Positions 51,168 to 64,000 of a DNA stretch of 64,000 bases are shown one piece after another. The translations under genes were made by a program, and so were the position numbers. Origin of the DNA: Acidimicrobiia bacterium. Its GTDB lineage: Bacteria > Actinomycetota > Acidimicrobiia > Acidimicrobiales > Poriferisodalaceae. The stretch lies in assembly GCA_022820505.1 (NCBI GenBank), contig JAJEFK010000054.1, forward strand, positions 1 to 64,000, in the 5' to 3' direction. The notes beneath the pieces were generated by a model that ran no database searches, was not told the DNA's origin, and saw only the letters and a list, made by a program, of their open reading frames with translations. Every line of letters begins with the position of its first letter. The first letter of the stretch is position 1.

Positions 51168-54100
51168 GTGGCCCTAGTGGTGAACTCGGACGATGCGAAC
51201 AGGCGCCTCTTCCCCGCCGGCCCGCTGCGCGGCAGCTCGCTATTGCGGTGCTTGATTGCGGCCCTTGGCGTACTGACCGCTGCTGCGCTGCTGCCGCTCT
51301 CTGCGGGCGCGGCGACCCCTCCGCCAGGGCCATGCGAGTCTGGCTGGGTCGCGCCGGCTCCTGTTTCTGTGACTGTCACCGATGTCCCGATCGAAGTGGC
51401 CTCGACCACTGACGACTACTTTGTTCTGTACATCAGAATCGACAGCAGTTCGCCCACGACAGATCTGCCGATCGCCGTGGTGTTGGGGGAGGATGGGACG
51501 ACCTCTCTCGCGGACAATCTCAGTCCTTTGAGCGCCGATCGCTACCTCGTCGAGAAATACTCGGTGAGCCAGCCTGCCGACATCGACGGCGATTGCATCG
51601 ACGATCTCACCGAACTCGCAGATCTGGGAACTCACAATCCCGTGAATCCCGGGCAAATCAGCAAGAACGCTCTCGGCGCTGTGGCCATTCCGAATCGCAG
51701 CGCATTCGAGACGCTTGCCCTCAAGGGTGTGCCGATCGGCGGATCTTACTTTGGAGCTGTGGAGTACGTCAACTTTTGGATTCTGAATGCCTTGTCTGAT
51801 CGCCCGACTGTCTATTTCATGAATACCAACAATACGATTCGGCACTTGGATTTCGCCAAGAAGCTGGGCTTCCACGACACATTCCGTGATGAAATACGAG
51901 GCACACTCATCTATAACCCAAATGTCGTCGCTCCGGACGGGTCTTTGGGGGTCTACCGCCTTGATCCATCGTCAGCCCATTGGAACGACTTTCCGTTCAC
52001 GCGCGTGGAGCGAGCGTATGAGATTCTCGCGTCAGCGATGCCATTTCTCGACAACAATCTTGCCTACCATCCTATCGGCTGGTCGTTTTTGGACCAGTAC
52101 AATCGCCAGAAGGCAGACTTCGATGCATCGAGGGTCAACGTCTTGTTGCAGGAAGATATCTTGCCGGATGTGGGTTTCATTCCGCTGAATCAGGCGGAAG
52201 GGTATGGTCGTCTGCGGTTGATGGAGGACGGAGAGCATCCGCTGCCGTACGATGTTGCCATCTATCGTTCGCTTCCGAATGATCTGCCCCGTGTTGCTGG
52301 GACGATTACGACGGTGCCTCAGACGCCGTTGTCGCATGTGAACTTGCGGGCAATTCAGAATGGTCTCCCCAATGCGTTCATTCGGGATGCACTGGATGAG
52401 GAGTCCATCGTCTCCCTTATCGGAAGCTACGTTCACTTTTCCGTGACGGCGGATGGGTACACCGTTCGCAAGGCGTCCAAAGCCGAAGTCGATGCGCATT
52501 ACGAGAAGCTGCGGCCAGCACAGACGCAGACGCTGCAGCGTGATTTGAGCGTCACCGAGATCGCATCGCTCGCTGACGTAGAGTTTGCTGACTGGACTGC
52601 GTTCGGCGTCAAGGCCGCCAACGTTGCCGAGCTTACACATCTCTCACTGCCAGATGGTACTGCACCGGTCGGTTTCGCGATTCCGTTCTACTTCTATGAC
52701 GAATTCATGAAGCAGGCGACGGTCACTGAGAAAACTCTGCTCGGCAAGAAGAAATGGCCCGGCGACGAAAAGATCACGCTGGCCGCCGGAACGACGCTGG
52801 CCAGCGCCGTCACGCAGATGCTCGCTCACGCCAAGTTCCAGGCTGACTATGACATCCAAGAAGAGATGCTGGACGACTTGCGTGACGCCATCAAGGATGC
52901 CACCACTCCCCAGTTCATCACTGACGCCTTGACCGCGATGCACGCCAAGTATCCGGACGGACAGTCGTTACGGTACCGTTCGAGCACGAATAATGAGGAT
53001 CTGCCATCGTTCAGCGGTGCCGGTCTCTACAGCTCGAAAACCCAGGATCCTGACGAGACGGCAGATGACGGCATAGACAAGTCGATCAAGAGCGTCTGGG
53101 CCAGCTTGTGGAACTACCGTGCATTTCGCGAACGCGACTTTCATCGCGTCGACCACACCACGGTTGCCATGGGAGTGCTCGTACACCCCAACTACGAAGA
53201 CGAACTCGTCAACGGCGTGGCCGTCAGCTATGACCCATTCACGCATCGCGACGGCATGTTCTACGTCAACTCACAAGTCGGTGAGGACTTGGTCACCAAC
53301 CCCGAACCGCTGTCACGACCGGAGGAGATCCTCCTCGACGCCAACGGCATTGCGACGGTGCTGTCGTATTCGAACCTGAAGGCTTCACGACAGCTGCTCA
53401 TGACCGACGCGCAGATGCAGCAGCTGCGCAGCAATCTCGCCACGATCCACGATCACTTCAAGACGCTGTACGCCGTCCAGACCGGCGACGACTATGCGAT
53501 CGAGATCGAGTTCAAGATCACTGCCGACAACGTGCTGGCCATCAAGCAGGCACGGCCGTGGCTGTTTACCGAACCGCTCGTCGTGCCGAACCCAACCGTG
53601 TCTCTTGGCTTTGTCGACGACCAAGTCACCGAAGGCAACGATCTTCAGCTTGTGGTCACCCGCAGCGGTGGGATTCTGTCGGTACCTCTCAGCGTCGGCT
53701 TCACGGTGCACGAAACCGGCCAGATGCTCGTGAGCACGCTGCCCGCCGAAGTCACGATTCCTGCGAATCAAACCAATGCAACCATCGCTATCGGGACGGA
53801 GCCAGACTCTCAAGCCGAGCACAACAGCATCGTCACCGCCACCCTGAATACTGACGCCGGCTACACCCTCGGCGCTCCTCAGTCAGACACCGCAACTGTC
53901 GAAGACGACGACGGTCCGCTGTGTGATGTTGCGACGGCGGTCGGCCGGGCGCGTGCTGCGTTCGTGTGGCATGTCGACAACAATGGCGGCAACGAGGTTT
54001 GGTTCTGGCAGATCTTGGCCTATCTGGGTGCTGATCCGTTGCCTGCGCTGCCGGGCGGCGCAGTCCTCGCGTCGACCACTCCTGAGGCGGTGAAGACGTT

Positions 54101-57100
54101 CAGCGATGGCAAGTCGTGGCCTGGCTGGGTGCCCATCAACGCCGCCATGTCATGCCATCCCCCGCCGCCCGAGATCAGCATCGCAGCCGGCGCCGACATC
54201 GACGAGGGCGGCGACGCGATCTTCACGGTCAGCGCCGACCCCGCGCCGACAGCCGCGCTGGCTGTGACGGTGGCGGTCGTCGTGTCGGGCGATTTCGGTG
54301 TGTCGCCGGGGTCGCATACGGTGAGGGTCCCCACCACCGGCAGCGCCGCCTTGACTGTCGCTACGACCAACGACAGCGCTGATGAGGCTGACGGGTCGGT
54401 CACTGCGACGGTCGGTGCTGGCAGCGGCTACCGGGTCTCCGTTGCTGCGGGCACGGCCTCTGTTGGGGTGGCTGATGACGATGTGCCTGAGGTCAGCATT
54501 GCTGCGGGTGCTGATGTCGGTGAGGGCGGCGATGCGGTGTTCACGGTGTCTGCCAGTCCTGCGCCGTGGGCGGCTTTGGATGTGTCTGTGGCAGTCACCC
54601 AAGCTGGCGATTTCGGTGTGTCGCCGGGCTCGCGGACGGTCACGGTCCCGACGTCGGGCACGGCGACGCTCACGGTCGCTACGGCCGACGACAGCGCTGA
54701 TGAGGCTGACGGGTCGGTCACTGCGACCGTCGGCATAGGGAGCGGTTACACGGTGTCGGCTGTTGCGGGGACGGCTGCGGTGGATGTCCGGGATGATGAT
54801 GATCCGCCGGTGTCTGATCCTGTGGTGAGCATCGCTGCAGGCAGCGGTATCACCGAGGGCGGCGTTGCGGTGTTCACAGTTGCTGCTGTTCCGGTGCCGT
54901 CTGCGCCGCTGACGGTCGCTGTGTCGGTAGCGCAGGCGGGCAGTTTCGGTGTGTCGCCGGGCTCGCGGACGGTCACTGTTCCCACGTCGGGCAGCATCAC
55001 GCTGACGGTGGCGACGACCGGCGACTCGGTCGACGAGCCGGACGGGTCGGTCACGGCGACGGTCAGCGCCGGCACGGGTTACACCGTCTCTGCGACGGCG
55101 GGTTCGGCGTCGGTGGCGGTGTCTGATGACGATGACCCGCCGCCGGTGGCCGATCGGTGCGTGGCGGTGCTGTCGGGCGACGGGAGCGTGAGCGGGGTGT
55201 GGGCTGCGGGCTGCGGTTCGTCGGCGCGCTCCGGCCGCTATGCGCGGTATTACACGTTCTCGCTGGACAGCCCGGGCCGGGTGACGGTCGATCTGAAGTC
55301 CCCGGCTGACACGTATCTGTACCTGCGCCGCGGTGCGGGCCAGAGGTCGGGTGCTGCGTTGGCGTCCGACGATGACGGCGGCGGCAACTTTGACTCGCGG
55401 ATCAGCCGGACGCTTGCGGCGGGCGGTTACACGATCGAGGCGACGACCTATCACGCGTCGACGCCGGGGAAGTTCACGCTGACAGTGGACGGCATCCCGA
55501 CACAGACCGTGGCACCGCCGGACCCGGAGATCGCTATCGCTGCGGGCAGCGGGATCACCGAAGGCGGCGACGCGACGTTCACGGTCACTGCGGTTCCGGC
55601 GCCGTCGGCGGCGTTGGATGTGACGGTGGCGGTGACGGCAGCGGGCGATTTCGGTGTGTCGCCGGGGTCGCACACCGTCACGATCCCCACGACGGGCACC
55701 GCCACGCTGACGGTGGCGACGACCGGCGACTCGGTCGACGAGGCTGACGGGTCGGTCACTGCGTCGGTCAGCGTCGGGACGGGTTACACGGTCTCCGCAA
55801 CGGCCGGGTCGGCGTCGGTCGCGGTGGCCGACGACGATGCGCCGCCGACGGTGTGCGTGCCGAGTCTGCCGTGGGATGCGGTGACGGTGGCTGAGGTGAC
55901 CGGCTGGCGCGGCGAGCTCTCCCATGCTGCCCATCAGCAGCGCTGGGACCGGGTGCTGGCCGCTTTGGGGGTGGACACCGGCGAGGAGGCGATGACCGTG
56001 GCGGACGCGCAGGCGGTCAAGGCGCGGATCGACAACTCCCGCTGGGACCGCACCGTGCGCACGCTGCAGGCCATGGCCCAATGCGACACCGACCCGCCAC
56101 CTGCGCCTGCGGCGGACCCCGAGATCAGCATCGCTGCGGGCGGCGGGATCACTGAAGGCGGCGACGCGACCTTCACGGTCACTGCTGATCCGGCGCCGTC
56201 GGCGCCGCTGGCAGTAAGCGTCACGGTGGCCCAGACAGGCGACTTCGGCGTAGCGACCGGCACGCGCCAGGTGACCGTCCCGACATCGGGGACAGTCACG
56301 CTGACGGTGGCCACTGTGAACGACTCCGCGGATGAAGCCGACGGGTCGGTCGCTGTCACGGTCAACGGCGGCACCGGCTACACCGTGTCCGCGGCCGCGG
56401 GCACAGCGACGGTCGCGGTCGCAGATGACGACGATCCGCCTCCGCCGGTGGCTGATCCTGAGGTGAGCATCACCGCCGGCGGCGGGGTCACCGAGGGCGG
56501 CGACGCGACGTTCACGGTCACTGCTGTTCCGGCGCCGTCGGCGGCTTTGACGGTGGACGTGACCGTGGCTCAGGTCGGCGATTTCGGTGCCGCAACGGGG
56601 TCGCGGTCGGTCACGGTGCCGACGTCGGGCAGCGTCACGCTGACCGTCGCCACGACCGGCGACAGCACCGACGAGCCGGACGGGTCGGTGACGGTCGCGA
56701 TCGACGCCGGCAGCGGCTACACGGTGTCCCAGTCGGCGGGCACCGCGACGGTCGCGGTGGCCGATGACGACGACCCGCCGCCGAACGCGACGCCGTCGTT
56801 GTCGATCAGCGACGCGTCGGCGGACGAGGGTGGCACGCTGACGTTCACGGTGACGCTCAGCCCCGCCAGCGACCGGTATGTGTGGGTGCACTACTACGCG
56901 CGGCCCAGGTACGGGGCTGGGCTGTCGGCGACCTTCGCGGACTTCGAACAGGCCTACGGGATGCTGACCTTCAGACCCGGCGAGACAACCAAGACCGTCA
57001 CCGTGGCAGCGGTCGACGACAGCCGAACCGAAGAAGACGAGACGTTCGTAGTCGTCCTGTACGCCGAGGTCCAAGCAGCAGTCGCCGACGGCGAAGGCAT

Positions 57101-57125
57101 CGGCACCATCACCGACAACGACTGA
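51168..57125 (+). CDS. secreted PEP-synthase-like dikinase domain protein with Calx-beta repeats
   Basis: 1985 residues, GTG start (other GTGs at 51177 and 51180). Order: signal peptide (LIAALGVLTAAALLPLSAGA, cleavage near 49); unassigned region with a Ca-loop-like DIDGDCIDDLTEL; phosphohistidine swivel-like motif GTITTVPQTPLSHVNLRAIQ (His390); PPDK/PEP-synthase ATP-grasp from about 470 (AFGVKAANVAELTHLSL, LRYRSSTNNEDLPSFSGAG near 601, IKSVWASLWNYRAFRERDF, AIKQARPWLF near 795); then about eight Calx-beta-like units to the C-terminus, interrupted by a PPC-like domain (about 1328-1445) and two small Trp-rich helical modules (about 916-1000, 1561-1648). The PEP TIM barrel is absent. The chemistry is unknown. 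The first third is visibly AT-richer than the rest. Confidence 0.85.
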   Translation: MALVVNSDDANRRLFPAGPLRGSSLLRCLIAALGVLTAAALLPLSAGAATPPPGPCESGWVAPAPVSVTVTDVPIEVASTTDDYFVLYIRIDSSSPTTDLPIAVVLGEDGTTSLADNLSPLSADRYLVEKYSVSQPADIDGDCIDDLTELADLGTHNPVNPGQISKNALGAVAIPNRSAFETLALKGVPIGGSYFGAVEYVNFWILNALSDRPTVYFMNTNNTIRHLDFAKKLGFHDTFRDEIRGTLIYNPNVVAPDGSLGVYRLDPSSAHWNDFPFTRVERAYEILASAMPFLDNNLAYHPIGWSFLDQYNRQKADFDASRVNVLLQEDILPDVGFIPLNQAEGYGRLRLMEDGEHPLPYDVAIYRSLPNDLPRVAGTITTVPQTPLSHVNLRAIQNGLPNAFIRDALDEESIVSLIGSYVHFSVTADGYTVRKASKAEVDAHYEKLRPAQTQTLQRDLSVTEIASLADVEFADWTAFGVKAANVAELTHLSLPDGTAPVGFAIPFYFYDEFMKQATVTEKTLLGKKKWPGDEKITLAAGTTLASAVTQMLAHAKFQADYDIQEEMLDDLRDAIKDATTPQFITDALTAMHAKYPDGQSLRYRSSTNNEDLPSFSGAGLYSSKTQDPDETADDGIDKSIKSVWASLWNYRAFRERDFHRVDHTTVAMGVLVHPNYEDELVNGVAVSYDPFTHRDGMFYVNSQVGEDLVTNPEPLSRPEEILLDANGIATVLSYSNLKASRQLLMTDAQMQQLRSNLATIHDHFKTLYAVQTGDDYAIEIEFKITADNVLAIKQARPWLFTEPLVVPNPTVSLGFVDDQVTEGNDLQLVVTRSGGILSVPLSVGFTVHETGQMLVSTLPAEVTIPANQTNATIAIGTEPDSQAEHNSIVTATLNTDAGYTLGAPQSDTATVEDDDGPLCDVATAVGRARAAFVWHVDNNGGNEVWFWQILAYLGADPLPALPGGAVLASTTPEAVKTFSDGKSWPGWVPINAAMSCHPPPPEISIAAGADIDEGGDAIFTVSADPAPTAALAVTVAVVVSGDFGVSPGSHTVRVPTTGSAALTVATTNDSADEADGSVTATVGAGSGYRVSVAAGTASVGVADDDVPEVSIAAGADVGEGGDAVFTVSASPAPWAALDVSVAVTQAGDFGVSPGSRTVTVPTSGTATLTVATADDSADEADGSVTATVGIGSGYTVSAVAGTAAVDVRDDDDPPVSDPVVSIAAGSGITEGGVAVFTVAAVPVPSAPLTVAVSVAQAGSFGVSPGSRTVTVPTSGSITLTVATTGDSVDEPDGSVTATVSAGTGYTVSATAGSASVAVSDDDDPPPVADRCVAVLSGDGSVSGVWAAGCGSSARSGRYARYYTFSLDSPGRVTVDLKSPADTYLYLRRGAGQRSGAALASDDDGGGNFDSRISRTLAAGGYTIEATTYHASTPGKFTLTVDGIPTQTVAPPDPEIAIAAGSGITEGGDATFTVTAVPAPSAALDVTVAVTAAGDFGVSPGSHTVTIPTTGTATLTVATTGDSVDEADGSVTASVSVGTGYTVSATAGSASVAVADDDAPPTVCVPSLPWDAVTVAEVTGWRGELSHAAHQQRWDRVLAALGVDTGEEAMTVADAQAVKARIDNSRWDRTVRTLQAMAQCDTDPPPAPAADPEISIAAGGGITEGGDATFTVTADPAPSAPLAVSVTVAQTGDFGVATGTRQVTVPTSGTVTLTVATVNDSADEADGSVAVTVNGGTGYTVSAAAGTATVAVADDDDPPPPVADPEVSITAGGGVTEGGDATFTVTAVPAPSAALTVDVTVAQVGDFGAATGSRSVTVPTSGSVTLTVATTGDSTDEPDGSVTVAIDAGSGYTVSQSAGTATVAVADDDDPPPNATPSLSISDASADEGGTLTFTVTLSPASDRYVWVHYYARPRYGAGLSATFADFEQAYGMLTFRPGETTKTVTVAAVDDSRTEEDETFVVVLYAEVQAAVADGEGIGTITDND
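54171..56790 (+). repeat. tandem Calx-beta-coding repeats
   Basis: Six long units of about 315 bases begin with codons for PE[IV][SA]I.AG, followed by EGG.A.FTV, then GDFG, TVTVPT.G, LTVAT, DE.DGSV.A.V and GYTVS, ending VADDD. They are very similar at DNA level, so recombination or assembly collapse is possible. Confidence 0.8.
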
Positions 57126-57131
57126 CGCCAG

Positions 57132-60100
57132 TCACACGAGGGCGAGCCAGGTGACGCAGTAGACGTCGTCAGGCGTGATCTCGGGCAGCGGCTCGGGCGG
57201 TTCGTAGGGCTGCAGGCCCAGCGCGTCGATCACCCTGATGATCTCGATGGCCTGCTCAGCCGGGCTAGTCGAGCTCTTGAGTGCAGCAGCGAGCGTTCGG
57301 ATGGTTCGCTCCGGGTAGGGAGCAGTGATCGTGTCGACGGTGCGGTCGATGTCGTCTTGCGTCATCTCCGGTGGAGCGTGGTCACGCACTACTTGTGCGG
57401 CGCGGGCCAGCCGGGGCGAAATCCGCGGCTCGAGGTTCGCCTTGTCGGACATGACGTTCCATTTGCGGACAATGTCGTCCTGGGCAACTTTCCACGCCTC
57501 GAATGCGCCTTCGACATCGAAGTCTTCCAATGTGCGCGGGGTCTCGAAGCCGGCAGGCGGGCGGGCGAGGTCGAGGCAGGCCAGCGACTCGTCCACCACG
57601 TCGCCGGGAGATGATCCGTCCCGGCCGACGAATCGGAACAGGGGCGTCGGGTGGTCGCCGACGCGGGCGCAAAAGACGTAGCCGGCTCGCCCGTCGCCTG
57701 AGCGGGCTGCCATTCCCGATCCGGAGCCCCAGGGCAGCGAGGCGATGTGCTCCGCGAGATCTGCGTCCTCCATTGCCTGGCGCAGCTCTTGGCGGAACTC
57801 CTCACCCGACAGGACGCCCTTCGCTGTTCCGCCCCGCTCGAACATGGTTGCGTCCTCGCGACGGATGCGTTCTATCTCCTCGCGTGTCTCGGTGAAGTTG
57901 AGTTCGTGATGCTGGCCTTGATCGGGCAGTATCTCGCCGACGCCCACACTGGCCGCGGCTTGCGCGATCTTGCGGTGCAGTCGTTCGGAGAGCCCGAGCA
58001 GGTCGTCCAGCCGGCTGTCGGGAAAGACGCAGCGCAGAAATACCTCAGCGTGACGTGAGCCGATGCGGTCGATGCGCCCATGACGCTGCACGAGGCGCAT
58101 CGGGTTCCACGGAAGGTCGTAGTTGACGATGTGGCAGGCCTGCTGCAGGTTCACGCCTTCGGCCAGCACATCGGTTGCCACCACGATGTCGTACAGGTCG
58201 TCGTCGCGGCCCTCGGGCGCATCGGTGGTGCGCGGGGCGAATCCCCACAGCACCGATTCCTTGTCGGCAGAGCCCGAGCTGCCTGCCACCGAAGCGATGC
58301 GCCCCCGGTAGGCAGCGAGCCGAGCGTCGGTGTGGGTCACCGTTTCGAGGTGCTCGACGATCCAGTGGACGGTGTCGGCGTAGTAGCTGAAGATCAGCAC
58401 CTTGTGCCGGTCGCGGGTGTCTTCGGCACCGATGCCGTGGGCACGTGCGTCGGCGGCGATAGCGGCAAGCTCATCGGTGAGGGCAGCCAGGTTCGGGTCT
58501 GCATCCCGTGTCACAGTGCGTGCCTCGGCTGCGAAGTCGCGCAGCAGGTCTCGGTCACGCTCGGTGTCCTGGCGCAACCGCTCGATGTCGAATTCTGCAG
58601 CATCGTCGGTGACTTGGACCAGGTGGTCCAAGAAGGCGTCGCGCTGCTTGTCGTCGAAATCATCGGTGTCGGCGGCGATCCAGTCCGCCAGTACGTCCCC
58701 GGTGCCCACCCGGCCTCCGTCAAGCAGCGACAGGAACGCGTCGTGGCTGTTTGCCATGCGCACGCACGTCTCTGCGAAGGCGTGGGGCGACGATTCGAAA
58801 CGCTTCAACAGGCCCGAGCGCAGCAGCCCGGTGAGCTGCAGTTCGTAGGTGTCGATCGCGTGGTCAAGCCGGTAGCGCGAGGGTGCGTAGCGCGCCAGTG
58901 TGAGGGTGTTTGTGTCAGTGGATTCGTCAGTCAGCGGGCGCCCAGCGCTTGCCGGATCATCGGCCTTGGCAACGTCAGACTCCCCGGTGCTGACGACAGG
59001 GTCGGCATCGAGCGCTGCGGCGAACCGGTCGAAGAATCCGGGCAGGACCGCGTCGAGGTCGTAGTTCACCTTGCGGACCCGAGGGGTCGGGAAGACGATC
59101 GGCGTGTCGTGTCCGCCTATGCGCACGATGTCGTTGGGGTAGAAGCGCTTCACGAACGAACGGGTGCGGCGCACGGCCACGGCGTCGAGCACGTCGAAGA
59201 GATGCTCAGGAGTCAGGTCGTCGGGGTTGAGCGCGACGGCCTTGGCGAAGTGATCGCGCAGCGAGCCGATGCCGACGTCGGCGAATTCCGCGTCGTTACG
59301 AAGGAAGTAGCCCAGCAGGTGGTACAAGTCCCACAGGCTGTTGTTTACCGGCGTCGCAGTCAGCATGACGAGTTGCTTCGGCGGCGATCCGGCGAGCAGC
59401 CGTCGCAGCGCTTGTGCCCGCTGCGTGGATGGATTGCGCAGATTGTGCGCCTCGTCGATCACCACCATCGCGTAGTCGGTGACGTAGCGCTGTTCGAGCT
59501 TGGTGCCAGTGGTGTGCTCAGGGTTGAGTCGCCCGTCGCGCATCAACGCCTCGAACGACACGAGCTCCATCGGCAGGTTGTGCTCGGCTCGGAACGCACG
59601 CCACGGGCCGTCCCGCAGCGTGGCAGGCGTGATCACCAGCACCTTCTGGCGACGCTCCAGGGCGGCTTCGCGAATCAGCTCGCCGGCGAGGAACGTCTTG
59701 CCGAGACCAACCTCGTCGGCCACCAGCACGCCGTGGCGCTCGTCGAGGATGCGGCGCGCGCGCCACAGTCCGTCTGCTTGGAACGAGGTGAGGTGGATCT
59801 GCGGGGCGCCCTCGGCATCGGCTTCGGCTTGCAGCTCGTCGCCATATCGCTCCCACAGCATCCGCAGGTACACGAGCTGTGGTGAGTGCGGTTCGAACCT
59901 GGCCTCGAACAGGGCGGAGAGATCGTACGGGGCCGCTTGATCCCACAGCTCGTCGAACCACTCCTGCACTTGTGTCACGACGTACGGTGCGTAGTTGCCG
60001 AGGTTCAGCTCCAGGTTGGACGCGAGTCCGGCGTAGGTGAAGTTGGACGATCCAGCCACGACGCCGTGCGATCGGTCACCCACCACGAAGGCCTTGCCGT

Positions 60101-60572
60101 GCAGGAATCGGCCCTCGAGACGCCGCACTTCCACGCTTGGCGATGCCAGCCAATCGGTGAGGCGTCGCGCCGCTGCGTGGGACTGGCGGCTGAAGCCCAA
60201 GTGGTCGCGTTCGAACCGGAGGAGCTGTTCCTGTTTCGCCAGCGCGCTGTGCATCCGGGCCCGAGCTGCCCGTGCCGGGTGAGCCGGCTCGGTGTGCAGT
60301 GCTCGTCGGCGGTTCTCCGGCGGCTGCGGCTCGGCGCCCAGCAGCAGCCGGACGCCTGATGCATGGTCGAGCGCATCAGCCAGCAGGGAGTACCCGCCGA
60401 CATTGAAATAGGCGGTCGCAATGTCCACTGCGGCACCGCCCACGAAGCCGGTAGCGGCATGAGCGATGAACCCGTTCAGCGCCTGCGCCACGGTCCGGCC
60501 GTCACGGTTGACCGCCAGTTCGGGCTTGCTCGGCATCTCAGCCATTGCGGACTGACCCGAAGCGTCGCTCAC
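57132..60572 (-). CDS. PLD-nuclease / SNF2-type helicase fusion, defence type
   Basis: 1146 residues. Residues about 40-195 form a phospholipase-D-like nuclease domain with one HKD half-site: FLHGKAFVVGDRSHG (His158, Lys160) and AGSSNFTYAGL near 174. An SF2/SNF2 helicase follows: Walker A VADEVGLGKTFLA near 286, TPATLRDGPW, DEAH at 373 in VVIDEAHNLRNP, TATPVNNSLWDLY near 405, and motifs V-VI DVLAEGVNLQQA and QRHGRIDRIGSRHAE near 830. The tail is helical. Such PLD-SNF2 proteins pair with adenine methyltransferases in DISARM- and BREX-like phage defence. GTG start; later in-frame ATGs exist. It converges on the secreted giant gene with a six-base gap. Confidence 0.88.
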   Translation of the reverse strand: MSDASGQSAMAEMPSKPELAVNRDGRTVAQALNGFIAHAATGFVGGAAVDIATAYFNVGGYSLLADALDHASGVRLLLGAEPQPPENRRRALHTEPAHPARAARARMHSALAKQEQLLRFERDHLGFSRQSHAAARRLTDWLASPSVEVRRLEGRFLHGKAFVVGDRSHGVVAGSSNFTYAGLASNLELNLGNYAPYVVTQVQEWFDELWDQAAPYDLSALFEARFEPHSPQLVYLRMLWERYGDELQAEADAEGAPQIHLTSFQADGLWRARRILDERHGVLVADEVGLGKTFLAGELIREAALERRQKVLVITPATLRDGPWRAFRAEHNLPMELVSFEALMRDGRLNPEHTTGTKLEQRYVTDYAMVVIDEAHNLRNPSTQRAQALRRLLAGSPPKQLVMLTATPVNNSLWDLYHLLGYFLRNDAEFADVGIGSLRDHFAKAVALNPDDLTPEHLFDVLDAVAVRRTRSFVKRFYPNDIVRIGGHDTPIVFPTPRVRKVNYDLDAVLPGFFDRFAAALDADPVVSTGESDVAKADDPASAGRPLTDESTDTNTLTLARYAPSRYRLDHAIDTYELQLTGLLRSGLLKRFESSPHAFAETCVRMANSHDAFLSLLDGGRVGTGDVLADWIAADTDDFDDKQRDAFLDHLVQVTDDAAEFDIERLRQDTERDRDLLRDFAAEARTVTRDADPNLAALTDELAAIAADARAHGIGAEDTRDRHKVLIFSYYADTVHWIVEHLETVTHTDARLAAYRGRIASVAGSSGSADKESVLWGFAPRTTDAPEGRDDDLYDIVVATDVLAEGVNLQQACHIVNYDLPWNPMRLVQRHGRIDRIGSRHAEVFLRCVFPDSRLDDLLGLSERLHRKIAQAAASVGVGEILPDQGQHHELNFTETREEIERIRREDATMFERGGTAKGVLSGEEFRQELRQAMEDADLAEHIASLPWGSGSGMAARSGDGRAGYVFCARVGDHPTPLFRFVGRDGSSPGDVVDESLACLDLARPPAGFETPRTLEDFDVEGAFEAWKVAQDDIVRKWNVMSDKANLEPRISPRLARAAQVVRDHAPPEMTQDDIDRTVDTITAPYPERTIRTLAAALKSSTSPAEQAIEIIRVIDALGLQPYEPPEPLPEITPDDVYCVTWLALV

Positions 60573-60655
60573 GGTATCCCGGCGTGTGAGCGTTCACCAG
60601 GCTCGCTCGCGCTGTCGATACAGCCGGTGATCTCTTCGGCCTGCGGACCTGTCAT
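60569..60655 (-). CDS. 28-residue mini-ORF linking methyltransferase and helicase
   Basis: ATG at 60655 overlaps the methyltransferase stop (ATGA), and its TGA overlaps the GTG of the helicase (GTGA). The peptide begins MTGPQAEEITGCIDS and ends AGIP. Exact junctions on both sides suggest a peptide that keeps ribosomes moving through the operon. It has no recognisable family and may be fortuitous. Confidence 0.35.
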   Translation of the reverse strand: MTGPQAEEITGCIDSASEPGERSHAGIP

Positions 60656-61431
60656 GTCAATCTCCTGAAGTGTTCGATGACCGCCGCGAGCCGGTCCAAG
60701 TAGCGCTCGGGCCGCTTCTCGTCGAACGTGGTGTAGATGACCTCGAGATCGTCCTCGTCAAGGCCGTACAGGTGAGCTACGCACGCGTCGAGTTCGTGGA
60801 TCAGGTCCCGCTTGGTTGCCTCGTCATTCGCTGAGCCAACAGGCACGCCGACCTCTGAGGCCCACTCAGCGAAGCGGTCATCGACTGCAGCCAGCCGTCC
60901 CGTAATCTCCACCACCCGATCCCGCACAGGATTTCCCTTGCCCGGGTCCGGAATGGACAGCAATCCCAACTGCTCGAATGTCATGTGCAATTCGACACTG
61001 CGGCGAGCCTGCCAGTCACAGGGCATGGACGAAAGCACACCGAGAAGGAAGGCCTCATCCGTCGGCGTGCCAGCAACCCTGAGGAGATACGGCGCTTGAT
61101 GCACTATGACTCGCTCACCGGGCACGAGCGCTGCGATCAGCGAGCGTGTATCAGTCGCCCTAGCTACGTCACGAAAGGTGATTCGTGCGTGCAGACACGG
61201 CAACGTATCCGGATTGTCAGTAGTGGCGTGTTCCTGTGCGGCGAAGGCCGAGGCGGATTTCGAATGCTGCGTCAGGCGTTTGTCGTGTAGGTGCTCGATC
61301 ATCTCATCGGCAACGGCGCTGTCGTAGTAGGTGCCCGTGTCGGGCTCCCAGATGTTGAACGACGAGCCCTTGTAGACGGGCCAGATGTCAGGCATCTCGA
61401 GGCCCACTTGTTCGCCGAGCCGCAGCGCCAT
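60652..61431 (-). CDS. C-terminal fragment of Eco57I/PglX-type DNA methyltransferase
   Basis: 260 codons in frame, with an internal ATG at 61431 that is probably not a real start. The sequence continues the target-recognition and C-terminal part of the methyltransferase whose N-terminal part lies at 61971-64000: LGEQVGLEMPDIWPVYKGSS, then LPCLHARITFRDVARATDTR, IVHQAPYLLRVAGTPTDEAF and LGVLSSMPCDWQARRSVELH, the usual end of class I adenine methyltransferases of R-M and BREX systems. It is separated from the N-terminal part by repeated segments, homopolymers and frame breaks, so as assembled it is a fragment. Confidence 0.75.
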   Translation of the reverse strand: MALRLGEQVGLEMPDIWPVYKGSSFNIWEPDTGTYYDSAVADEMIEHLHDKRLTQHSKSASAFAAQEHATTDNPDTLPCLHARITFRDVARATDTRSLIAALVPGERVIVHQAPYLLRVAGTPTDEAFLLGVLSSMPCDWQARRSVELHMTFEQLGLLSIPDPGKGNPVRDRVVEITGRLAAVDDRFAEWASEVGVPVGSANDEATKRDLIHELDACVAHLYGLDEDDLEVIYTTFDEKRPERYLDRLAAVIEHFRRLT

Positions 61432-61628
61432 CGTCGTTCACGAACCGCTCCCGGTCCCGGGTCGCGTCGAACTCACGGACAGGGCGGAAGCGCCATCGTC
61501 GTTCATGAAGAGGTGTCGGTCGTGCGTCGCGTGGAGCTCGGCGATTGGGCGGAAGCGCCATCGTCGTTGAGGAAGCGGTGCCGGTCGGTCGTGGCGTTGA
61601 GGTCGCCCTGGACCGGTCGGAACCGCCA
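61425..61628 (-). repeat. three diverged direct repeats of a methyltransferase segment, out of frame
   Basis: Units start at 61425, 61490 and 61555 (periods 65, 65 and 68), with a partial fourth at 61623. On the minus strand each encodes a variant of FRP[VI], then ATxDRxxF and NDDGA, but a period of 65 shifts the frame each time. The units are about three-quarters identical, not perfect copies. Confidence 0.8.
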
Positions 61629-61663
61629 CGTTCGTGGCCGTTCCTGGTGCTCGAGAATCTTGC

Positions 61664-61742
61664 GGGGGGGGGGGGGGGGGGTCCGCGCGGCGTGCGCGTT
61701 CCCGCCAGAGAGAGGGGGGGGCGGGGGCCCCCCCCCCCCCCC
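61664..61742. other. homopolymer cluster: G18, then G8-C-G5-C15
   Basis: G runs from 61664 to 61681, and G8, one C, G5 and C15 from 61714 to 61742. The 32 bases between them resemble a diverged copy of the codons just beyond the second tract. Such tracts inside a gene are either slippage (phase-variation) sites or assembly junctions. Confidence 0.85.
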
Positions 61743-61970
61743 AGCGCGTCTGGCGCATTCGCGCCATCGAAACGCGGCTGCAGCTTCATACGCCGCCACA
61801 CGCGGAAGGCATCACGTCGCGGAATCTGCGGAAAGGCTGCTGTGTTGGACCAGCTCAGGAATTCTGAGACCGGGATCAGTTCGGGCTTGCCGTCGACCAG
61901 TTCTCGAAAGTGAGCGAGCGAGCGGGCCGGTCCGGGGTAGATCGCTACGTGCGGGTCGTCGGCTTCGGCC

Positions 61971-64000
61971 TCAAAGCCACCCCCATGGTTCGGCGCCCCG
62001 GCTGCGCTTGCGGGCCGCGACGATGGCGATCGTGTAGCGGCCGTCGACGTCGTCGAACGTCCATTGTTGGGCATTGAGGCACGTGACGACCGTGAGTTGC
62101 GCGTGACCGCGGCCAGCACCACCGTGTAGGAGTTGTGGACTCCCTCGAACACCCAGCCCTTGTGATTGATGAGGGTTGAGGTGGCGATGCACTGGATTTG
62201 CCCCCCCCCCCCCGTCGATGCTGACAATCTCCTGACGCCAGTTCGCCATGCCCGCGTCAGAGACGGCCGAACGCGGCAAGACGATGCCCAGCCTGCCGCC
62301 ATCGCGGCAGAGCGCGAGATTCGCCCACGCGAACGCCTTATACAGGTCGGTCTGGCCGGTGCCGAGATGGGGGAACGCCGCTCGCAGGATCAGCTTGAGA
62401 AACTCCGCGCGTTCTCGCTCGGACTCGAACTCCCCTGCGAGATCAGGCCGTTGTGCCTCCAGCGTGTCGATGCGTTCCCGGCGGCGCGCAACCGGCAGCG
62501 AGCGCACGCCGGGCAAGTGCATGCCCCACCACACTTCGCGGTCGACCACCACTTTCTCCCACGGCGGGTTGCCAAGCAGGCAATCGAAGCCGCTCCGCCC
62601 TGATCTCGCGAATACCTCGGGCCATGTCGTCGGGTAGTGAACGGGCGCCAGTCGTTCGATGACGCTTCGCACCACAGGGTCATCGGCCAGTGCGGCGATG
62701 CGAGCCGGGGTGAAGTCAAAATCGCGATGTATCTCGATCATCCCGGCACGGACAGCGGTCGCCACGTCGAACACGTCGTCGATTGGTCGGACTGCTGAAC
62801 GAGTGGCGAAGTGAGCTTCCCTCGCCGCCGCCACTTCCGACTTGTCAGCGTCATTCAGCGCAGCGAGCCGAGCCAGCGGCTCGTGGATCGCCTCGATCAT
62901 GATCTCCAACTGGTGTACGAACAGCGAGGGTTGCGATGTGTCTCCTTTGGGCCGAACAGCCAACGCGCCGTCCTCCACCGAAGCAACGCCGGTGAGGCTG
63001 TCGCCGTGGACGAGGTTGTGGTCGAGGAAGGACAGCGGGAGGCCGGGCACGAAGGTGTGGACCCAGATGGCGAGACGCGCCAGCTCGACGGCAACGCGGT
63101 TCTTGTCGACGCCGTAGACGCAGTGTCGAGCAATCTGGCGACGCAGTAGCGAGCCAGTCTCGATCTCGATGCCGTCGCCCAGGTCGCCGAGTTCGTCCAT
63201 GGCGACGTTTCGCAGCCTGTTCAGTTCCGCCGTGATCGCCGGAACCGGGTGTAGCGAAAGCCATGCCGACAGACGTGCCTCGATCCGGTCGACTGTCGCC
63301 ACGAGGAAATGAGCGGAACCCATGGCGATGTCTGCACACCGGAAGTCGAAGAACGCCGCAGCCACCCCAGCGTCGTCATCAGCGTTTCGCAGCGTGTCGA
63401 GTCGGGCGAGGTGGTCGTCGAGCGCAGGTTCGAGCGCGTGATCCAGCAAGTGCTCTACCGCGAACGGCTTGGTGAAGTAGGAACCTGTCGCCTTGCGGGT
63501 GCCGGAAAGGTTGTGGAAGTACACCTCGCCGGCCTTCACCACCGCCTCGTCCTTCGCTCCGGCAGGCACATACTGCAGGTCGCTTTTGACTTTCTTGACG
63601 GTCAGATCGTCAGGTGCAACTGACAGCTTCGATTCCAGCAAACCCTCATAGATCGTTCCAAACTCCCGCACCGACAGCGACCGGAAGTCGACGGGACCCA
63701 GCCCCTGAGGGCCGTGGTCGACCAGCGCCGCCGCAAGAGCGGGACCGAACTCGGCGTTAGTGAGGCGCAACTGTGCGATCGCTGCGCCGGTAGGGCTGAC
63801 CTTCGGATCCTCAGAGAACAGGCCTCCGTTGTAGGTCGGCACGCCCCAGTCGGCGTTGCCCTGGTTGACCGCATCCCACAGGCCGCATACGTCATCCCAC
63901 ATGTCGGTGGCGCGCTTGTCGAAATGAGTCCTGGCGTTGTGCTCGCCATCGGCGAGTCGTTGAGCCATGCGCGACAGCGAGTGATCCGCGTAGCGGCCGT
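61971..64000 (-). CDS. Eco57I/PglX-type class I DNA adenine methyltransferase, N-terminal part (5' end outside window)
   Basis: The frame is open to the right edge; the ATG at 63968 is internal to conserved sequence, so the gene starts beyond the window. Features in order: PTYNGGLFSEDP, FGTIYEGLLESKL, KATGSYFTKPFAVEHLL (methyltransferase entry helix), the SAM motif I CADIAMGSAHFLVATVDRIE, YGVDKNRVAVELARLAIWV and the catalytic FDCLLGNPPWEKVVV near 62560. Such enzymes make N6-methyladenine in type IIG, BREX (PglX) or DISARM-like systems. The good frame ends at the C13 tract (62201-62213); beyond it, sequence continues in other frames (LINHKGWVFEGVHNSYTVVL, then SEFLSWSNTAAFPQIPRRD). As given the gene is disrupted. 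Confidence 0.8.
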   Translation of the reverse strand, partial: GRYADHSLSRMAQRLADGEHNARTHFDKRATDMWDDVCGLWDAVNQGNADWGVPTYNGGLFSEDPKVSPTGAAIAQLRLTNAEFGPALAAALVDHGPQGLGPVDFRSLSVREFGTIYEGLLESKLSVAPDDLTVKKVKSDLQYVPAGAKDEAVVKAGEVYFHNLSGTRKATGSYFTKPFAVEHLLDHALEPALDDHLARLDTLRNADDDAGVAAAFFDFRCADIAMGSAHFLVATVDRIEARLSAWLSLHPVPAITAELNRLRNVAMDELGDLGDGIEIETGSLLRRQIARHCVYGVDKNRVAVELARLAIWVHTFVPGLPLSFLDHNLVHGDSLTGVASVEDGALAVRPKGDTSQPSLFVHQLEIMIEAIHEPLARLAALNDADKSEVAAAREAHFATRSAVRPIDDVFDVATAVRAGMIEIHRDFDFTPARIAALADDPVVRSVIERLAPVHYPTTWPEVFARSGRSGFDCLLGNPPWEKVVVDREVWWGMHLPGVRSLPVARRRERIDTLEAQRPDLAGEFESERERAEFLKLILRAAFPHLGTGQTDLYKAFAWANLALCRDGGRLGIVLPRSAVSDAGMANWRQEIVSIDGGGGANPVHRHLNPHQSQGLGVRGSPQLLHGGAGRGHAQLTVVTCLNAQQWTFDDVDGRYTIAIVAARKRSRGAEPWGWL
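62201..62213. other. C13 homopolymer (G13 on coding strand) in the methyltransferase
   Basis: On the coding strand a G13 run follows the codons for IVSID. With 12 or 15 G the frame would continue into IQCIATSTLINHKGW; with 13 it does not. This is the arrangement expected of a slippage switch. Confidence 0.8.

What the first reader, a model, noticed from the sequence alone, without database searches (positions are those of the whole stretch)
61425..62215. Tandem out-of-frame variants of the same methyltransferase segments
Three different pieces of the protein each appear more than once as diverged homologues: the FRP..ATxDR..NDDGA segment three to four times, the GANAPDAL/GGNAHAAR segment twice around the poly-G/C tract, and the GWVFEGVHNSYTVVLAAVTR versus QWTFDDVDGRYTIAIVAARK segments back to back. 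Copies are not identical, so simple slippage does not explain them. Either the assembler strung alleles from several strains together through shared k-mers and poly-G, or the gene carries an array of alternative recognition-domain cassettes.
Basis: seen in the sequence. Interest (0 to 1): 0.72.

Follow-up and report, generated by a model that had tools for sequence, protein, structure and literature searches.

The report
Reading-frame-selected DNA-specificity cassettes in methyltransferase
A bacterial restriction-modification gene carries two sets of small DNA-reading segments, each copy in a different reading frame behind a slippery DNA repeat, so that slippage of the repeat probably swaps which DNA sequence the enzyme recognises.

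Summary
The repeated segments are real, not an assembly artefact. They recur in dozens of related loci, mainly Acidimicrobiia MAGs, including megabase contigs. The gene is a Type IIG restriction-methyltransferase beside a PLD-SNF2 helicase. Two segments are tandemly duplicated: S1 (two copies) and S2 (two to five). Neighbouring copies are offset by 2 mod 3 (one exception), so each lies in another frame. Every S2 set and most S1 pairs follow a simple-sequence repeat (SSR) of unit 1, 2, 4, 5, 8 or 10 nt, never 3, 6 or 9. Copies show purifying selection in their own frame only. In 38 of 39 tandem loci the S2 copies belong to different residue classes (RExD, AExH, QGDxN). By structure alignment the varying residues fall on BrxX K681/D684, MmeI Y642/K645 and CamA 346, published base readers three positions before the methylated adenine. 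S1 matches the BrxX loop reading the base after it. The S1b frame ends in a prfB-like +1 frameshift site leading to the common frame; S2 frames end at or before a separately started TRD, often by ATGA-type overlap. Best reading: SSR slippage selects which specificity cassette is translated. Slippage, frameshifting and changed specificity remain untested.

The parts
62217..64000 (-). Methyltransferase coding part upstream of the switch (Type IIG; whole gene starts at contig C21 position 65156, beyond the window)
   Evidence: PADLOC PDLC03620 E=1e-129 for the window part and 4e-192 for the 1061-aa ORF; Pfam Eco57I
62201..62213 (-). SSR1: G13 on the coding strand (C13 on +), directly upstream of the S1 pair
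   Evidence: relatives have SSRs of unit 1, 2, 4, 5 or 10 nt here
62099..62167 (-). S1a cassette NHKGWVFEGVHNSYTVVLAAVTR; its frame is open into the body
62007..62078 (-). S1b cassette LNAQQWTFDDVDGRYTIAIVAARK; the cassette in frame with the upstream gene in this assembly
61971..61984 (-). GGGGGTGGCTTTGA: prfB-like +1 frameshift site at the end of the S1b frame
61746..61970 (-). Common body (EAEADDPHVAIYPGPARSL ... QPRFDGANAPDA) in the S1a frame, +1 of S1b
61664..61742 (-). SSR2: G15, C8 and C18 tracts on the coding strand with a short spacer; part may be an assembly fault
   Evidence: absent insert in L027
61551..61628 (-). S2 copy 1, class QGDxN
61486..61560 (-). S2 copy 2, class AExH
61421..61495 (-). 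S2 copy 3, class RExD; in frame with the body in this assembly
60652..61395 (-). Separately started TRD (MPDIWPVYKG...); its start overlaps the stop of the S2 copy 3 frame as ATGccTGA
57132..60572 (-). PLD-SNF2 helicase, companion gene (start codon not settled)
   Evidence: its start is found in 38 of 62 related loci

Best explanation
This is a phase-variable Type IIG restriction-modification gene in which slippage of simple-sequence repeats selects among homologous DNA-specificity cassettes that lie one after another in different reading frames. SSR1 puts the ribosome in the frame of S1a, of S1b, or of neither (off). From S1a the frame runs straight into the common body. From S1b it reaches CTT-TGA behind a G-rich Shine-Dalgarno-like run and, by a prfB-like +1 ribosomal frameshift, enters the same body. 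SSR2 then decides which S2 cassette ends the methyltransferase polypeptide; with three copies nearly every phase gives one. In most three-copy loci the TRD is made as a separate polypeptide from a start codon just downstream; in two-copy loci and some three-copy loci one S2 frame is also fused to it. S1 supplies the loop that reads the base after the methylated adenine; S2 supplies residues that read the base three positions before it. One locus could thus make up to 2 x 3 recognition specificities, and some loci carry two or three TRDs. Shown here: anatomy, conservation, frame-specific selection, frameshift-site motif, overlapping starts, structural position. Inferred: slippage in vivo, frameshifting, assembly with the TRD in trans, changed specificity.
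For: SSR upstream of 39/39 tandem-S2 and 28/32 tandem-S1 loci, 0/10 and 0/23 single-copy loci; units never a multiple of 3; spacings 2 mod 3 in 32/32 and 65/66. Own-frame pN/pS 0.26-0.41 for S1a, S1b and S2 copies 1-3 against 0.92-1.66 in the other frames. Present states spread over copies: S2 8/7/8 and one none of 24 three-copy loci; S1 a 11, b 6, neither 15 of 32. +1 site in 30/32 loci, 28 of 28 motif hits in 1.03 Mb at this place, nucleotides conserved beyond the peptide. TRD start overlapping an S2 stop as NTGA in 28/39. S2 classes all different in 38/39 loci. Structural register onto BrxX, MmeI and CamA base readers; S1 Phe onto BrxX F592.
Against: No reads, methylomes or proteins were available. 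Actinomycetota lack the prfB site and M. smegmatis shifted at only about 6%. The S1a and S1b forms each carry about 30-40 out-of-frame residues. S1 reads neither copy in 15 of 32 loci, and in 14 two-copy loci S2 copy 1 is read in none. Some copies are decayed (L035, L043, L047, L059). hhalign did not align S2 with BrxX K681/D684; the register assumes no gap in the first 14 residues of the alignments. Loci are related and the profiles favour intact copies.
Confidence: 0.72

Rival explanations
1. Frame-proofing: the copies only keep an essential structural segment readable whatever the SSR phase; specificity does not change, and the SSRs serve ordinary on/off or expression control.
For: Each frame carries a copy and S2 states are evenly spread; S2 packs with the TRD in the model.
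Against: 38 of 39 loci hold all-different S2 classes in varying order, and the differing residues lie on base-reading positions of three solved enzymes; redundancy alone would not ask for this.
Confidence: 0.15
2. Plain on/off phase variation with remnants: one frame is functional, the other copies are leftovers of duplication that are decaying.
For: Decayed copies exist in L035, L043, L047 and L059; S1 reads neither copy in 15 of 32 loci.
Against: Own-frame purifying selection on every copy set, a conserved recoding motif at the S1b end and class-specific signatures kept across loci.
Confidence: 0.08
3. Assembly artefact: alleles of several strains strung together through shared k-mers and poly-G.
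For: The window's G15...C18 insert is odd and absent from L027; one MAG contig, L029, ends in G50.
Against: The same architecture in 39 loci, including megabase contigs or chromosomes (L059, L069, L080; G321 contig C1 with L096 and L120), with many SSRs that are not homopolymers.
Confidence: 0.03

Closest known systems
NgoAV Type I R-M of Neisseria gonorrhoeae, poly-G in hsdS1 (PMC9577141, passages read)
   Same: SSR slippage in a specificity gene changes the recognition sequence by altering what is read in frame
   Different: There loss of one G fuses two half genes; here homologous single-base cassettes are stacked in staggered frames and chosen by phase, with a recoding site and a separately started TRD
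C-terminal phase variation in Helicobacter canadensis and N. gonorrhoeae (PMC2823697 and PMC5320596, passages read)
   Same: A repeat late in the gene gives different C-termini in the three frames, sometimes a fusion to the next gene
   Different: The passages read do not describe alternative ends that are homologous versions of one segment
Phase-variable Type IIG enzyme of Campylobacter jejuni NCTC11168 (PMC4889913, search listing only)
   Same: Type IIG enzyme whose methylation is phase variable
   Different: The listing describes phase-variable site-specific methylation and expression; cassette choice is not mentioned in what I saw
prfB (RF2) +1 programmed frameshift (PMC12421855, passages read)
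   Same: SD-like run six nt before the stop, CTT codon, in-frame TGA, +1 shift to the open frame
   Different: Here in an R-M gene, in a phylum whose prfB lacks it; 8 of 32 loci have CCT instead of CTT
BrxX/PglX, MmeI and CamA methyltransferases (PMC11842806, PMC4833311, PMC8187626; passages, and sections 9 and 10 of the first)
   Same: Fold of MTase and TRD; base-reading positions in the S1 and S2 equivalents
   Different: In the passages read a single fixed copy of each segment is described

Membership tests
Type IIG restriction-modification enzyme | Matches a Type IIG profile over MTase and TRD | tested here: met
   PDLC03620 covers 56-986 in the 1061-aa ORF and 1132-1355 in the TRD ORF; single-copy L066 55-1370 of 1378
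Type IIG restriction-modification enzyme | Nuclease, MTase and TRD in one polypeptide | tested here: not met
   In the window no S2 frame is open into the TRD, which has its own start; single-copy homologues such as L066 are one ORF. It is therefore filed as a split, Type IIG-derived enzyme
Type IIG restriction-modification enzyme | DNA cleavage by an N-terminal nuclease domain | not tested
   No nuclease motif search or assay was done
SSR phase-variable (contingency) gene | SSR inside the coding region with a unit that shifts the frame | tested here: met
SSR phase-variable (contingency) gene | Tract length varies within a population and switches reversibly | tested here: inconclusive
   Lengths differ between species about 95% identical here (L033, L035, L036); no within-population reads
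C-terminal phase variation | Each frame after the repeat gives another protein end | tested here: met
   S2 frames each end in their own cassette and stop or fusion
prfB-type +1 programmed frameshift site | SD-like run six nt before an in-frame TGA preceded by CTT, downstream ORF in +1 | tested here: met
   Window GGGGGTGGCTTTGA; CTT-TGA 22/32, CCT-TGA 8/32 loci; +1 in 32/32
prfB-type +1 programmed frameshift site | Ribosomes shift there | not testable with these tools
   Needs a reporter; low efficiency is reported in M. smegmatis
DISARM or BREX system | MTase is DrmMI or PglX and the other core genes are beside it | tested here: inconclusive
   MTase scores far better with REase_MTase_IIG; helicase scores with HKD+Snf2 and DrmD about equally; other core genes were not sought

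The most novel reading that the evidence does not exclude
A separate class of contingency locus: frame-addressed cassette arrays. Nearly every SSR phase is productive, each frame encoding another base-reading variant of the same protein element, with a recoding site and overlapping starts converging the frames again, so one gene of nearly fixed length makes six or more DNA specificities without recombination.
Probability: 0.55. Interest if true: 0.95.

Novelty: new variant of a known kind. Interest (0 to 1): 0.9.

Why it matters
R-M systems are known to change specificity by inversion, recombination or fusion of half genes (recalled). If this reading holds, bacteria also do it by reading frame alone: mutable repeats choose between tiny paralogous cassettes that each read about one base. 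That would be a multi-state switch instead of on/off, would place a prfB-like frameshift in a phylum reported to have lost it in prfB, and would offer natural single-base specificity modules for methyltransferase design. It also warns that annotation pipelines may call such genes frameshifted or misassembled.

Tried and rejected
Assembly artefact: rejected for the arrangement. Diversity-generating retroelement: considered only; no reverse transcriptase was searched for, and fixed class signatures with low own-frame pN/pS speak against random adenine mutagenesis. Reinitiation between S2 copies at TGAACGACGATG: not supported, the ATG is ACG in L028. PDB sequence search with one homologue gave nothing; a profile gave only weak CamA and BseCI matches.

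hhalign with BrxX alone placed S1 against the next strand; with a PglX alignment it paired the S1 Phe with F592 but did not align S2 with K681/D684, and a narrower run gave no significant alignment. The S2 register rests; in the MAFFT columns read by eye, anchoring on the conserved Thr would shift it by one residue. The pattern demanded A or G where the window has T, so its zero says nothing. One search included redundant loci; one search repeats it on 6-15 sequences per set.

Dropped before counts: one search scanned WIN and L027-L082 (57 loci); L034 and L041 have no S1 or S2 hit; loci whose contig ends before S2 (such as L029, L037, L039, L062, L067, L073) count for S1 only. L043 S1b is broken: and one search count it as a pair, as single. 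L083-L088 were left out of those counts. One of six search peptides is an S1b peptide, which favours S1b loci; (query ending at S1 of single-copy L066) is less biased and gave one further arrangement, L120 (ACCA repeat, two S2); several L091-L120 loci repeat earlier ones.
Full report
What is there. The window (first 64 kb of contig C21 of a 3.29-Mb, 61-contig genome) holds on the minus strand a Type IIG restriction-methyltransferase (PADLOC PDLC03620, E=4e-192 for the 1061-aa ORF; start at contig position 65156) followed by a PLD-SNF2 helicase gene. Profile positions 987-1131 are missing from the plain ORFs; that region, about 62220-61378, is about 840 nt long where about 435 would be expected (arithmetic). 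S1a and S1b are two versions of NxxxWxFxxVxxxYTxxxxAxx; S2 occurs three times as WRFRPxxxxxATxDRxxFxNDDGA, each copy in another frame.

Not an artefact. A same-genus search found the same split of one protein over two frames in relatives. One scan of genome contigs gave 62 loci. Among WIN and L027-L082, 32 have paired S1 and 39 have two to five S2 copies. Distances between neighbouring copies are 2 mod 3 in 32 of 32 S1 and 65 of 66 S2 cases; the remaining one is 1 mod 3. An SSR lies within 130-140 nt upstream in 28 of 32 tandem-S1 and 39 of 39 tandem-S2 loci, and in 0 of 23 single-S1 and 0 of 10 single-S2 loci. Units are 1, 2, 4, 5, 8 or 10 nt (poly-G/C, GA/CT, CCGA, CAGC, CCAA, GCCGA, CCGAC, AGGCCGAC and others), never a multiple of 3. 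The upstream coding background had one SSR in 87.5 kb. The loci are related to one another, so the counts are not independent events.

All copies look used. Pairwise pN/pS in the own frame is 0.26 (S1a), 0.41 (S1b), 0.26, 0.40 and 0.40 (S2 copies 1-3) on non-redundant sets, against 0.92-1.66 in the other two frames. Detection by protein profile favours intact copies, so this is supportive, not final. Decayed copies exist (L035, L043, L047, L059). The frames set by present tract lengths are spread: three-copy loci read S2 copy 1, 2, 3 or none in 8, 7, 8 and 1 of 24; S1 a, b or neither in 11, 6 and 15 of 32. In 14 two-copy loci, copy 2 is read in 4, neither in 10, copy 1 in none. In the window S1b and S2 copy 3 are in frame.

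How the frames come together again. The S1a frame is open into the common body in 32 of 32 loci. The S1b frame ends 34-40 nt after the cassette in 30 of 32 loci, and the body is in the +1 frame in all 32. The stop stands in GG[AG]GGT-NN-C[TC]T-TGA: CTT-TGA in 22, CCT-TGA in 8; the G run ends six nucleotides before TGA, which is the layout given for prfB (PMC12421855, passages). L029 has AGGAGG there. The exceptions are L043 (S1b broken by TAG) and L050. The motif GGGGGTNNC[CT]TTGA occurs 28 times in 1.03 Mb (both strands, L027-L088), every time at this place. In the body frame it uses GGT (30 of 30) and TTT (22 of 30), although these are 15% of Gly and 14% of Phe codons upstream, so the nucleotides are conserved, not only the peptide; L050 kept the peptide and lost the site. 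Caveat: Actinomycetota lack the prfB site and M. smegmatis shifted at about 6%; the prfB of this genome is open without a stop.

After S2. In the window and in most three-copy loci no S2 frame is open into the TRD. The TRD has a start codon three to nine codons before its conserved Trp in 36 of 39 tandem-S2 loci, mostly exactly four before it in three-copy loci. In 28 of 39 this start overlaps the stop of one S2 frame as NTGA; in the window, L027 and L028 it is ATGccTGA. Upstream of it a Shine-Dalgarno-like match of 4 nt or more is present in 67% (of 36) against 27% of 1790 other NTG codons. In most two-copy loci one S2 frame ends in that overlap and the other is fused to the TRD. Single-copy L064 and L066 have no such start. 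Nine loci show two or three TRD starts (L030, L033, L036, L038, L040, L050, L052, L055, L076), with poly-G tracts between.

What the cassettes do. A model of the single-copy homologue L066 (pLDDT 74) aligns with CamA and BrxX/PglX (Z about 19). hhalign of our family with PglX proteins (E=5e-14) pairs the S1 Phe with BrxX F592, in loop 587-601, which reads the base pair after the flipped adenine (section 9 of PMC11842806). A model of S2 plus TRD (pLDDT 89.8) aligns with BrxX 9ewz_C (Z 12.1, 4.0 A, 197 residues; model 1 at 671), MmeI 5hr4_C (Z 11.7, 4.3 A, 196; model 2 at 633) and CamA 7lni_B (Z 13.7, 3.5 A, 190; model 1 at 333). If there is no gap (the tool gives only end points), the S2 residues that differ between copies (model 11 and 14) fall on BrxX K681 and D684, MmeI Y642 and K645, and CamA 343 and 346. 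The papers name BrxX K681/D684 and MmeI Y642/K645 as readers of base pair 2 of a site methylated at position 5, and CamA residue 346 as contacting A3 of a site methylated at position 6. All are three positions before the methylated adenine. Every tandem locus but one holds all-different S2 classes: NHD 22, NDH 2, ND 6, HD 5, DH 2, NH 1; L076 is NHDDD. Different classes in one locus, in varying order, are expected of a specificity switch and not of mere structural redundancy.

Known or new. SSR phase variation, SSR-driven fusion of half specificity subunits (NgoAV) and C-terminal phase variation are known. I found no report of homologous cassettes staggered over reading frames behind an SSR, nor of a recoding site used together with phase variation, in searches of an open-access library; subscription papers are mostly not covered. 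I file it as a new variant of SSR phase variation. The individual steps (slippage, frameshift, trans assembly, altered specificity) are inferences.

Noticed in passing
61664-61742: The window's SSR2 holds G15, C8 and C18 tracts around a short spacer that resembles the flank; L027 has a single C10 here. Doubled tracts also occur in L037, L038 and L040. Real or assembly fault is open.
   Followed up: partly
L090:1825-1837 (G000:C51:93824-93836): The only other G tract of 13 or more in the genome; it lies in a short ORF without a clear gene, near a 351-aa minus-strand ORF.
   Followed up: partly
[quoted passage not shown]
   Followed up: partly
L117:3660-3669: A distant homologue with one S2 copy has G10 right after it, perhaps a simple on/off form of the switch.
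   Followed up: no
L062, L071: Paired-S1 loci in MAGs named Bryobacterales and Acidobacteria: gene transfer between symbionts or misbinned contigs.
   Followed up: no
51168-57125: A 1985-aa plus-strand ORF with a 339-nt tandem repeat at 56127-56783, perhaps an exported repeat protein.
   Followed up: no
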